Assembly: GCF_016863115.1 (NCBI RefSeq)
Contig: NZ_BOOG01000023.1
Span: 1 to 64,000, forward strand
Direction: 5' to 3'
DNA length: 64,000 bases
From: Sphaerimonospora thailandensis
Lineage (GTDB): Bacteria; Actinomycetota; Actinomycetes; Streptosporangiales; Streptosporangiaceae
Shown: positions 19,624 through 22,000 of the stretch, one piece after another
Position numbering within the stretch: the first letter of the stretch is position 1
Layout: the number at the start of each line of letters is the position of its first letter
Translations under genes and position numbers: made by a program
Notes under the pieces: model-generated
Databases searched by the model: none
What the model was told of the DNA's origin: nothing
The model's input: the letters and a program-made list of their open reading frames with translations, nothing else

Positions 19624-19655
19624 GAAGTGCGCGGATATCTCTGTGGAGGCGCGCC

Positions 19656-21452
19656 TTGGCCAAGCTCGACGGAATGGATCCCAAGCTCGTACGCGAACTG
19701 CTGCGGGAGGTTCAGCAGGCCGGCAGGGAGATACAAGACGTCGAGGCCCGGGTCACGGGGGTGATGCGCCAGGCCGGAGTCGCGGCGCACGTGACCTACC
19801 GTCCGGCACAGGTCGCCGACGATTGCACGTCCATGGTCAAAGACGTGACCGGCCGGTTGGCCGTGCTGGAGAAGAAAGAGAAGCAGCGCGGCGGGAACGG
19901 CAAGCCGGCCGAGAACAAGGGCCAGAAGTTCTACCAGGAGCCCGACATCACCATGCCGGCGGATGATCCCAAGCCGGAGGATCATAAGTCGAACGGCGCC
20001 AAGCCGGATCACAAGCCGGAACCCAAGGGCGACCACAAGCCGGACCACAAGGCCGAAGCCAAATCGGAGCACAAGCCGGAACCCAAAGCCGACCACAAGC
20101 CGGATCCCAAGGCGGACGACCACCGGGCGCATGACAAGGCCGCCACCGGAAACGGGGCCGGCACGCACAGCGCGGCCGATGACGCGAAGCCGGCGAAGGG
20201 CGGCGAAAAGAATCCCCGCGTAGCCGAGGGCTCTCTGTCGCAACCTCCGCCAACTGCCGACGAGACAGCACGCACCGGCCAGGCAACGGTCGAGCCCGTC
20301 GGCCAGCCCGTCGGCCAGCCCGCCACGCAGCCATCCGTTCCGCCGGCCGACCCACATCAGGATGCGGCAGGTAACTCGAGCGCGTACGGCACCGGCACGA
20401 CCGATGCGACGAGTCCCGCCACCGGAGCCGGCACTGGAGTCGGTGCGAGTGCCGACGGCGCCGGTAATGCCATGGGCAATCCCGGAGGCGACGCGAGCGC
20501 GGCGGGCGGTACGGCGACCTGCCAGTGCGTCGGCATGTGCCGCTGCGGCATGGCGAACGGCACGGGCACCGCCGCGATGACCGGAGCGGGGGGCGTGCAC
20601 CCGGGCGGTGGCGGCGCCGACGCTGCCACGACGGGGGGCGTGGTCAATGCCTCCTATACCGATGCCGGCCAGGGCACGGCGCCCGCCCCGAGTTCGGGCA
20701 CGGCCGCCGCGCCCGCCGCCGTCCCCAGCGCCAACCAGGTCCCTGACGCCAACCAGGTCAACCAGGTCCCCAACGCCACTGACGCCACGGCCGGGGGCGC
20801 ACCTGGTACGGGCCATGTCGCGCAAGACGTGTCCGGAACTACCGGCGTCCCCGTCCGGGATGACTCCCAGATCTTCGACACGCTGGGAAAGGACCATCCC
20901 GACGACATCGACCAGACCGCGGGCCGCCAGGTGATGGTGGTGGACGGGGTCAAGGTCGTCAGCACGCCGATGAACATGCCCGGAGTCGCGGACACGCAGG
21001 GCGCGGGAGCGCAGCCGGCGAGCATGGTGACCGGTCCCCATCCCGACGGCCCGCCGGGTTTCGTCGAGCCGCTCGAACCCGCCCACTCCGGCTCCGGCCA
21101 GCACACAGGCTCCGGGCACGTCGGCGGCCCCCCCGTCGGGAACACGGGCTCCGCATCCACTGCCTCCGGGCACGCGGCATACGGAAACGCGATCTCCGGG
21201 AACTCCGGTCACTCGGTGCCGGCGCCCGGTCAGTCAGAGCTGGCGCCGGGAGACCCCATGGGCGACTACGTCGGCACGCCCGCTGACAACGTCACCGAGG
21301 ATCCGTACGCCACGGGCGACGCGAGCTCGGCGCCGGGAACGCCCGAGGACCAGGACCGCCCGCTGGTGGTGGAGGTCCACCTGGCGACGCCGGATGACGC
21401 CGGCGGGCCCGGCACGTCCGGCGACCGCGGCCAGAGGGAGGTTACGCTGTGA
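19656..21452 (+). CDS. Unknown protein: helical N-terminal domain with long low-complexity tail
   Basis: 598 aa from TTG (GGAGG upstream). Residues 1-75 look like two amphipathic helices (MDPKLVRELLREVQQAGREI, then PAQVADDCTSMVKDVTGRLA), about the size of a WXG100/ESX-like hairpin but without a WxG. Residues 100-160 are a charged DHKPEPK/DHKPDPK repeat. A Gly/Ala/Thr/Pro-rich stretch follows, interrupted near residue 290 by CQCVGMCRCGM, a C-x-C-x3-C-x-C cluster. A short structured-looking patch (GRQVMVVDGVKVVSTPMNM) lies near 430. No signal peptide or membrane helix. Its stop overlaps the next start (GTGA). The frame is real, judging by third-position GC and the coupled partner, but no family is recognised. 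A substrate or scaffold linked to type VII secretion is a guess. Confidence 0.6.
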   Translation: MAKLDGMDPKLVRELLREVQQAGREIQDVEARVTGVMRQAGVAAHVTYRPAQVADDCTSMVKDVTGRLAVLEKKEKQRGGNGKPAENKGQKFYQEPDITMPADDPKPEDHKSNGAKPDHKPEPKGDHKPDHKAEAKSEHKPEPKADHKPDPKADDHRAHDKAATGNGAGTHSAADDAKPAKGGEKNPRVAEGSLSQPPPTADETARTGQATVEPVGQPVGQPATQPSVPPADPHQDAAGNSSAYGTGTTDATSPATGAGTGVGASADGAGNAMGNPGGDASAAGGTATCQCVGMCRCGMANGTGTAAMTGAGGVHPGGGGADAATTGGVVNASYTDAGQGTAPAPSSGTAAAPAAVPSANQVPDANQVNQVPNATDATAGGAPGTGHVAQDVSGTTGVPVRDDSQIFDTLGKDHPDDIDQTAGRQVMVVDGVKVVSTPMNMPGVADTQGAGAQPASMVTGPHPDGPPGFVEPLEPAHSGSGQHTGSGHVGGPPVGNTGSASTASGHAAYGNAISGNSGHSVPAPGQSELAPGDPMGDYVGTPADNVTEDPYATGDASSAPGTPEDQDRPLVVEVHLATPDDAGGPGTSGDRGQREVTL

Positions 21453-21835
21453 CGTTCGCCGACCCGCCGGCGCCCACGCCACGTCAACCCGGTGAGCAGC
21501 CGCCCACCACGTCGACCAGCGACCTGCTCTCTCCTGGGGGTCAGCCGACGGGCTGGGTGTTCAACCCGGAGTACCAGAAACTCGTCGACCTCTGGTTCCA
21601 GGTGCTCCCGCAGATGGATCGCCTCACCCGGTCGCTCGACAAGCCCTATGCGATGGCGCGCAGCAAGGACGTCTGGGACGCGCCGGTGTCCGGACGCTAC
21701 GTCGAGGACCTGGCCGAATGGCGAAAGAGGCTGGCCATGTACCGCCAGGCCGTGCTCACCGCCATCAGCGATCAGGCGGCGGACACCCCGCGCTGGGTGC
21801 CCGGCGGCACGCGTGCGCCGCACGCGTTCTCCTGA
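21449..21835 (+). CDS. Unknown small protein coupled to the low-complexity protein
   Basis: 128 aa, GTG start overlapping the previous stop, which indicates coupled translation. The first 35 residues are Pro/Thr-rich. The rest predicts helices: NPEYQKLVDLWFQVLPQMDRL, then VWDAPVSGRYVEDLAEWRKR and MYRQAVLTAISDQA. The VWDAP turn followed by a long helix recalls the helix-turn-helix of WXG100 proteins, but the family match cannot be confirmed by eye. It ends 165 bp before the WecA-like gene. It probably forms a complex with the 598-aa neighbour. Confidence 0.6.
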   Translation: MTFADPPAPTPRQPGEQPPTTSTSDLLSPGGQPTGWVFNPEYQKLVDLWFQVLPQMDRLTRSLDKPYAMARSKDVWDAPVSGRYVEDLAEWRKRLAMYRQAVLTAISDQAADTPRWVPGGTRAPHAFS

Positions 21836-22000
21836 CACGCGTCGCCTCTGTCGGCACGGGAGTGACCGCGGGTGCGCTAACGTCTGTGCAAGGGTAAAGG
21901 GGCTGACCGCGGCGCCTCCGGCATATCCCCGTGGTGAGTATGGCGGTCCGTGTCGCTTTCCCGGCACAACGTGTCCGCTTATGCAGGGAAACTGGGTTCC

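What the first reader, a model, noticed from the sequence alone, without database searches (positions are those of the whole stretch)
19656..21835. Unrecognised two-gene cassette between tsaC and the WecA-like gene
A 598-aa protein and a 128-aa protein are translationally coupled (GTGA overlap) and placed in an otherwise conserved block of housekeeping genes. The first has a helical domain of about 75 residues, a long repeat-rich disordered part and a cysteine cluster. The second has helices and a VWDAP turn. Size, pairing and helical layout recall WXG100/ESX partners, but no WxG or secretion tail is clear. That a secretion or envelope scaffold system is encoded is inference.
Basis: partly seen in the sequence, partly recalled or inferred. 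Interest (0 to 1): 0.65.

Follow-up and report, generated by a model that had tools for sequence, protein, structure and literature searches.

The report
WXG100-like gene pair beside tsaC
A family of soil bacteria carries, at one fixed place among housekeeping genes, two neighbouring genes whose products look like distant cousins of the paired helical proteins that bacteria export through type VII secretion, one of them with a long floppy tail; what the pair does is not known.

Summary
Two translationally coupled genes (598 and 128 aa) lie between tsaC and a wecA-like gene; neither has a Pfam or NCBIfam match. In the 80 best named relatives (Streptosporangiaceae by their record names, one MAG unplaced), P1 precedes P2 in all 73 loci whose contig reaches that far. 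Most sister genera go from tsaC to wecA without it, so the pair is probably an insertion fixed in one clade. P2 and the P1 N-terminus are under purifying selection; the tail evolves fast and its cysteine cluster is private to one genus.

P2 is homologous to ~100-aa proteins with an invariant WxG. The P1 N-terminus is homologous to the N-terminus of larger proteins encoded near most of those. So both genes belong to one family of two-gene pairs, which shows weak but non-random similarity to WXG100. P2 itself has WxA, and YxxxD/E is absent. AlphaFold models each as a helical hairpin, apparently packed together. Best reading: a WXG100-like heterodimer with a disordered tail, probably a type VII-type substrate. 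Export is inferred; canonical EccB is absent from 5 of 14 carrier genomes, this one included.

The parts
19645..19649 (+). Shine-Dalgarno-like GGAGG, 6 bases before the TTG start of P1
   Evidence: read directly
19656..21452 (+). P1, 598 aa, helical N-terminus plus long low-complexity tail
   Evidence: orthologues in 73 of 80 named loci, the other 7 cut at a contig end
19656..19895 (+). P1 N-terminal helical hairpin (residues 1-80), homologous to the N-terminus of the larger members of other pairs
   Evidence: hhalign 95.8 %, 72 columns; 0 of 100 shuffles reach the score; modelled on the L158 orthologue
19896..21449 (+). P1 low-complexity tail, 326-1143 aa total P1 length across orthologues
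   Evidence: composition, lengths, median dN/dS 0.27-0.66
20520..20546 (+). cysteine cluster CQCVGMCRC, genus-specific
   Evidence: 2 of 73 P1 sequences
20889..20984 (+). conserved island in the tail, KDHPDDIDQ...VVDGVKVVSTPMNMPG
   Evidence: VDGVKV-type motif in 57 of 73, KDHPDD-type in 49 of 73; matching stretch modelled as a beta hairpin in the L158 orthologue, moderate confidence
21449..21452 (+). GTGA overlap, P2 start and P1 stop
   Evidence: 4-base overlap in 7 of 70 named loci, spacing of 30 bases or less (overlaps included) in 47 of 70
21449..21835 (+). P2, 128 aa, WXG100-like helical hairpin with WxA turn
21674..21685 (+). WDAP turn of P2, at the place of WTGP in the related ~100-aa proteins
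   Evidence: aligned; W and A invariant in 14 of 14; W-x-A in 78 of 79

Best explanation
P1 and P2 are a clade-specific, vertically inherited pair descended from a wider actinobacterial family of two-gene pairs related to WXG100 proteins. The P1 N-terminal hairpin and P2 form a four-helix heterodimer, as EsxA/EsxB or PE/PPE do. The heterodimer works as the recognition and carrier part, and the long acidic, Gly/Pro/Ala/Asp-rich tail of P1, with its short conserved islands, is the functional cargo. It is most likely handed to a type VII-type ATPase and ends up in or across the cell envelope. The one candidate machine common to the carrier genomes is the EssC-like ATPase that, where I looked, lies beside a WXG100 gene and Tad-pilus genes. 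Shown: pairing, homology of both members, selection, fixed locus. Predicted: hairpins and their packing. Inferred only: export, which machine, and place of action.
For: Both members are homologous to both members of other pairs (controls). The two related profiles resemble WXG100: small member 68.8 %, larger member 47.5 %, 0 of 100 column shuffles reach either score. The small-member profile's best PDB sequence match is S. aureus EsxA, E 0.014 and 0.018 for two constructs, above threshold and mixed with unrelated helical chains. 4 of 19 small members touch WXG100 and 4 touch EspB_PPE, none below E 0.03. The joined model has both hairpins at block pLDDT of 89-98, and single helical-bundle chains align over 114-139 residues across both parts, more than the 72 helical residues of the P1 part, so the two parts pack together in the model. 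An EccC/EssC-like ATPase hit and a WXG100 gene are in 14 of 14 carrier genomes.
Against: No YxxxD/E in any orthologue and WxA in place of WxG. Direct profile comparison of P1 or P2 with WXG100 is at noise or barely above it. No secretion gene lies beside the pair in any of the loci listed. EccB is missing from 5 of 14 carrier genomes. WXG100 genes are also in 9 of 15 same-family genomes without the pair, so co-occurrence is weak. The model has pTM 0.51 and no interface score was returned.
Confidence: 0.45

Rival explanations
1. The pair is a WXG100-like heterodimer that has lost export and works inside the cell as a scaffold, the tail binding partners through its short islands; WxA and the missing YxxxD/E record the loss.
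For: Missing export motif and WxA turn, no machine nearby, persistence where EccB is absent, steady expression context inferred from housekeeping neighbours.
Against: The related pairs also lack obvious export motifs, so a loss in this clade is not shown; the fast-evolving Gly/Pro/Ala/Asp tail is unusual for a core cytosolic scaffold (inference).
Confidence: 0.3
2. The pair is an ordinary substrate of the canonical actinobacterial ESX (T7SSa) system.
For: EccB and an above-cut-off EccC are in 9 of 14 carrier genomes.
Against: The window's own genome and four others with the pair intact have neither EccB nor an EccC over the cut-off.
Confidence: 0.08
3. The pair is a derived remnant of the larger pairs, whose partner lost its ~550-residue DUF6571-like C-terminal part and kept only the dimer and an unconstrained tail, with little function left.
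For: The larger partners carry a DUF6571 match at least in L044 (E 3.5e-12) that P1 lacks; tail dN/dS up to 0.66.
Against: P2 dN/dS 0.13-0.25 and 57 of 73 tails keep the VDGVKV island; kept in all 73 testable loci.
Confidence: 0.12
4. The open reading frames are not genes.
For: None beyond the high G+C, which gives many long chance frames.
Against: Conservation, order, spacing and selection.
Confidence: 0.01

Closest known systems
WXG100 family (PF06013), EsxA/EsxB
   Same: about 100 aa, helix-turn-helix with a Trp turn; operon pairs; relatives of P2 have WxG and a weak profile link
   Different: P2 has WxA; no YxxxD/E; no Pfam hit; one partner has a tail of hundreds of residues; no machine nearby
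LXG effectors with Lap1/Lap2 partners (T7SSb; passages of PMC9600955 seen)
   Same: a longer protein with a helical N-terminal domain next to a small helical-hairpin partner thought to target it
   Different: P1 N-terminus is one hairpin of about 80 residues, not an LXG domain of about 200; no toxin domain; LXG and Lap profiles were not hit in the Pfam and NCBIfam scans
PE/PPE and EspB of mycobacterial ESX (recalled, plus passages of PMC9600955)
   Same: side-by-side helical pair, one partner with a long variable tail
   Different: no PE or PPE hit for P1 or P2; 4 of 19 related small proteins touch EspB_PPE only at E 0.03 or worse
Unnamed pairs of a ~650-aa (partly DUF6571, PF20211) and a ~100-aa protein in Streptosporangiaceae and another actinobacterial family
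   Same: both members homologous, same hairpins, members encoded near each other
   Different: those have a long globular C-terminal part, WxG, and scattered loci, sometimes with a small extra gene between; P1 has a disordered tail and the locus is fixed

Membership tests
WXG100 (PF06013) | match to the Pfam profile above cut-off | tested here: not met
   0 hits for P1 and P2 at E up to 10
WXG100 (PF06013) | WxG in the turn | tested here: not met
   WxA in 78 of 79 P2, 1 without the pattern; related small proteins have W and G invariant in 19 of 19
WXG100 (PF06013) | about 100 residues, two antiparallel helices | tested here: met
   P2 model, helices 40-61 (with 64-71) and 78-112, mean pLDDT 79.5; 94-97 in most core blocks of the joined model; prediction only
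WXG100 (PF06013) | remote homology by profile comparison | tested here: inconclusive
   P2 2.5 %, P1 1.9 % direct; through relatives 68.8 and 47.5 %, above all 100 shuffles
Type VII secretion substrate | YxxxD/E after the hairpin of one partner | tested here: not met
   0 of 79 P2 and 0 of 72 P1 N-termini, first 95 residues; window also lacks it by reading
Type VII secretion substrate | heterodimer of two hairpins | tested here: inconclusive
   joined model packs the two parts, judged by aligned lengths only; no interface score
Type VII secretion substrate | export depends on an EccC/EssC ATPase | not testable with these tools
   EccC/EssC-like hits in 14 of 14 carrier genomes; no secretion data
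LXG / Lap | LXG domain in the long partner; Lap1 or Lap2 family in the small one | tested here: not met
   no Pfam or NCBIfam hit for P1 or P2 at E up to 10 other than two unrelated weak ones
Two-gene pair family (larger partner with F-x-G-I/M-D-P start, small partner with NP...WTGP) | small partner homologous | tested here: met
   98.6 %, E 8.7e-16, 85 columns; HMM hits to 20 proteins, one in each of the 20 paralogue loci, E 1e-4 or better
Two-gene pair family (larger partner with F-x-G-I/M-D-P start, small partner with NP...WTGP) | larger partner's N-terminus homologous | tested here: met
   95.8 %, E 8.2e-9, 72 columns; single-sequence HMM hits weak in the loci (best E 0.018), one independent hit E 1.2e-4 falls in such a protein
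Two-gene pair family (larger partner with F-x-G-I/M-D-P start, small partner with NP...WTGP) | globular (DUF6571-like) C-terminal part | tested here: not met
   no hit in P1; low-complexity tail. Members in L061-L063 also have short or different C-terminal parts

The most novel reading that the evidence does not exclude
The pair is the fixed envelope or sporangium protein of Streptosporangiaceae: a WXG-like heterodimer that carries a disordered, rapidly evolving tail out of the cell through an undescribed minimal type VII machine, made of the EssC-like ATPase and WXG100 protein found beside Tad-pilus genes in these genomes, without EccB. It would define a type VII substrate class recognised without WxG or YxxxD/E.
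Probability: 0.15. Interest if true: 0.75.

Novelty: new variant of a known kind. Interest (0 to 1): 0.42.

Why it matters
It links an unannotated gene pair kept in a whole bacterial family to the WXG100 world through a family of two-gene pairs that no profile library names, and shows how far the WxG turn and export motif can drift while the pair is kept. If exported without EccB, it would make the minimal requirements for type VII recognition testable. If not exported, it is a case of a WXG-like heterodimer recruited to work inside the cell.

Tried and rejected
Pfam and NCBIfam on P1, P2 and the P1 N-terminus: nothing usable. Foldseek against PDB with the P2 model: 119 matches, none at E below 0.001, mostly generic helical pairs. 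Foldseek with the joined model: none below 0.001. VIA-align gave ferritin-like and other helical bundles at Z up to 9.9; for helical bundles the tool itself says this may mean only a common arrangement, so I use it only for the joint packing, not for a family; no type VII chain was listed there. PDB sequence search with the larger-partner profile: unrelated helical proteins only.

The cysteine cluster was considered as a metal or redox site and dropped as genus-specific. A repeat-unit count against tail length gave no relation, r = 0.20. DUF6571 has no paper in the library searched; the searches for Sphaerimonospora with type VII secretion and for WXG100 with actinobacteria and Nonomuraea gave none. 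I found no description of this pair, but only by those searches, listings only apart from PMC11217815, PMC3935865 and PMC9600955, of which I read passages.

Apparent exceptions checked: L143 has a 1198-base gap between P1 and P2 because a run of unknown bases breaks the P1 frame, and the tail continues in another frame to near P2. L145, L147 and L151 lack tsaC upstream because polysaccharide-type genes lie there; P1-P2-glyA-wecA stay together. L156's odd gene order is an artefact of an extended frame.

Rows dropped: L128 (P1 present, start not matched by my regular expression), L131 (start of P2 misassigned) and the 7 contig-edge loci were left out's spacing count; L177 also fell out there for want of a P2 match, giving 70 of 80. 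One search's start pattern missed L034 and L035 (P1) and L036 (P2); I added them afterwards.

Full report
Observation. The two genes are as described. P1 spans 19656-21452 and P2 21449-21835, overlapping by GTGA. A ribosome-binding site lies 6 bases before the TTG of P1. The block is prmC, tsaC, P1, P2, wecA-like, atp genes. No Pfam or NCBIfam profile matches either protein.

Distribution. P2 has strong orthologues (E 7e-42 or better) in 14 of 60 genomes searched, own included, all among the 37 genomes of the window's family in that set. A search with the P1 N-terminal profile finds the same 14 of 60. A scan of named genomes found 110 relatives and kept 80; their titles name Streptosporangiaceae genera (Sphaerimonospora, Microbispora, Planotetraspora, Nonomuraea, Streptosporangium and others) except one MAG called only an Actinobacteria bacterium (family membership of the genera is partly recalled). 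The closest named match is Sphaerimonospora mesophila at 95 %, so the window is probably a Sphaerimonospora. P1 lies upstream of P2 on the same strand in 73 of 80; the other 7 loci begin at a contig end shortly before P2. tsaC is upstream in 70 of those 73; in three Streptosporangium loci polysaccharide-type genes lie there instead.

Absence elsewhere. Of 23 same-family genomes without the pair, 21 have tsaC. In 18 of these 21 a wecA-like gene follows tsaC within the fetched 1.5 kb with no such pair between; in the other 3 no wecA-like gene was within reach. The pair therefore looks like an insertion fixed in one clade.

Selection. Median dN/dS is 0.126, 0.216, 0.205 and 0.249 for P2 in Microbispora, Nonomuraea, Streptosporangium and Herbidospora, 0.15-0.43 for the P1 N-terminus and 0.27-0.66 for the tail, whose alignment is poor. 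P1 is 326 to 1143 aa long. The tail keeps a VDGVKV-type island in 57 of 73, a KDHPDD-type in 49 of 73 and an xPxDMP-type in 48 of 73, and the CxC..CxC cluster in only 2 of 73.

What it is related to. P2 finds two more proteins in its own genome (C85 and C19) and more in relatives. These are about 100 aa, begin near NP and have W and G of WTGP invariant in 19 of 19 aligned. In 15 of the 20 paralogue loci taken an N-terminus of the type F-x-G-I/M-D-P was aligned; L049 and L051 have a divergent one and L061 a shorter relative, and in L050 and L060 I found none. One of them matches DUF6571 at E 3.5e-12. Profile comparison gives 98.6 % for P2 against the small members and 95.8 % for the P1 N-terminus against the larger ones; cross-comparisons as controls give 2.5 and 0.3 %. 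None of 100 column shuffles reaches either true score, and reversed profiles fail. In single-sequence HMM searches the P1 link is weak, E 0.018 at best in those loci, and 1.2e-4 for a further protein of the same type. Both genes thus come from one family of pairs. A class-wide sample found the small member in 24 of 197 genomes, own included, mostly the window's family and one other.

Link to WXG100. Against an alignment of 20 WXG100 domains, which I chose from the hits for having a W-x-G turn, the small members score 68.8 % and the larger N-termini 47.5 %, both above all 100 shuffles; P2 scores 2.5 %, also above all 100 shuffles but at a low score, and P1 1.9 %, reached by 1 of 100 shuffles. 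So membership in WXG100 is not shown for P1 and P2; descent from a WXG100-like ancestor is likely but rests on the bridge family. P2 has WxA in 78 of 79 and no YxxxD/E; P1 N-termini have none in 72 of 72.

Structure. AlphaFold models P2 as helix 40-61, short helix 64-71, WDAP turn and helix 78-112, mean pLDDT 79.5. To see both partners together I used the shortest orthologue, Thermoactinospora rubra (L158), where P2 follows P1 in frame, and read the stop as a residue. The P1 part gives helices 9-39 and 50-80, the P2 part helices 364-384, 388-395 and 403-435, block pLDDT 89-98 in these; most of the tail is below 60, with a beta hairpin at the VDGV island around 75; pTM 0.51. Single-chain helical bundles align to 114-139 residues running from the P1 part to the P2 part (rmsd 2.7-4.6 A in the five best rows), which neither part could supply alone, so the model packs them into one bundle. 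That is indirect, since no coordinates or interface scores came back.

Machine. The own genome has one WXG100 gene, beside a 1644-aa FtsK-type ATPase whose best NCBIfam match is EssC of Firmicutes (475 bits, below the cut-off), and Tad-pilus-like genes. EccB is in 9 of 14 carrier genomes and missing from the window's own. EccC-type hits are in 14 of 14, above the curated cut-off in 9, WXG100 in 14 of 14. WXG100 is also in 8 of 8 carriers and 9 of 15 non-carriers of the family examined, which are not independent, so this is weak support at most.

Verdict. Shown: a real, conserved, paired operon with remote kinship to a WXG100-like family. Predicted: two hairpins in one bundle. Inferred: export of a disordered tail by a type VII-like route, more likely through the EssC-like ATPase than through ESX, since 5 carriers lack EccB. 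A cytosolic role is the main rival. Passages, not whole texts, of PMC11217815, PMC3935865 and PMC9600955 were read for the features of type VII systems, WXG100 and LXG/Lap pairs.

Noticed in passing
own genome C22: L070:12821-18044 and L071; same layout in L217, L218, L219: A WXG100 gene beside a 1500-1850-aa EssC-like ATPase gene and Tad-pilus-type genes in 4 of 4 carrier genomes looked at; best NCBIfam match is the Firmicute EssC model, below cut-off. The passages I read of PMC11217815 describe Tad-linked type VII variants only from Bacillota, so this may be an undescribed variant in actinomycetes.
   Followed up: partly
L044, L046-L049, L051-L059 and others: A family of two-gene pairs (DUF6571-like or other larger protein plus ~100-aa WTGP protein), often with a small lipoprotein-like or other small gene nearby, in Streptosporangiaceae and another family.
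   Followed up: partly
window 21836-21970: glyA, found between P2 and the wecA-like gene in most relatives (58 of 80 loci show it), is missing at this place in the window and its genus mate.
   Followed up: no
L145, L147, L151 before P1: Polysaccharide-type genes (chain-length protein, low-molecular-weight phosphatase, deacetylase, glycosyltransferase by eye) sit where tsaC is expected in three Streptosporangium species.
   Followed up: no
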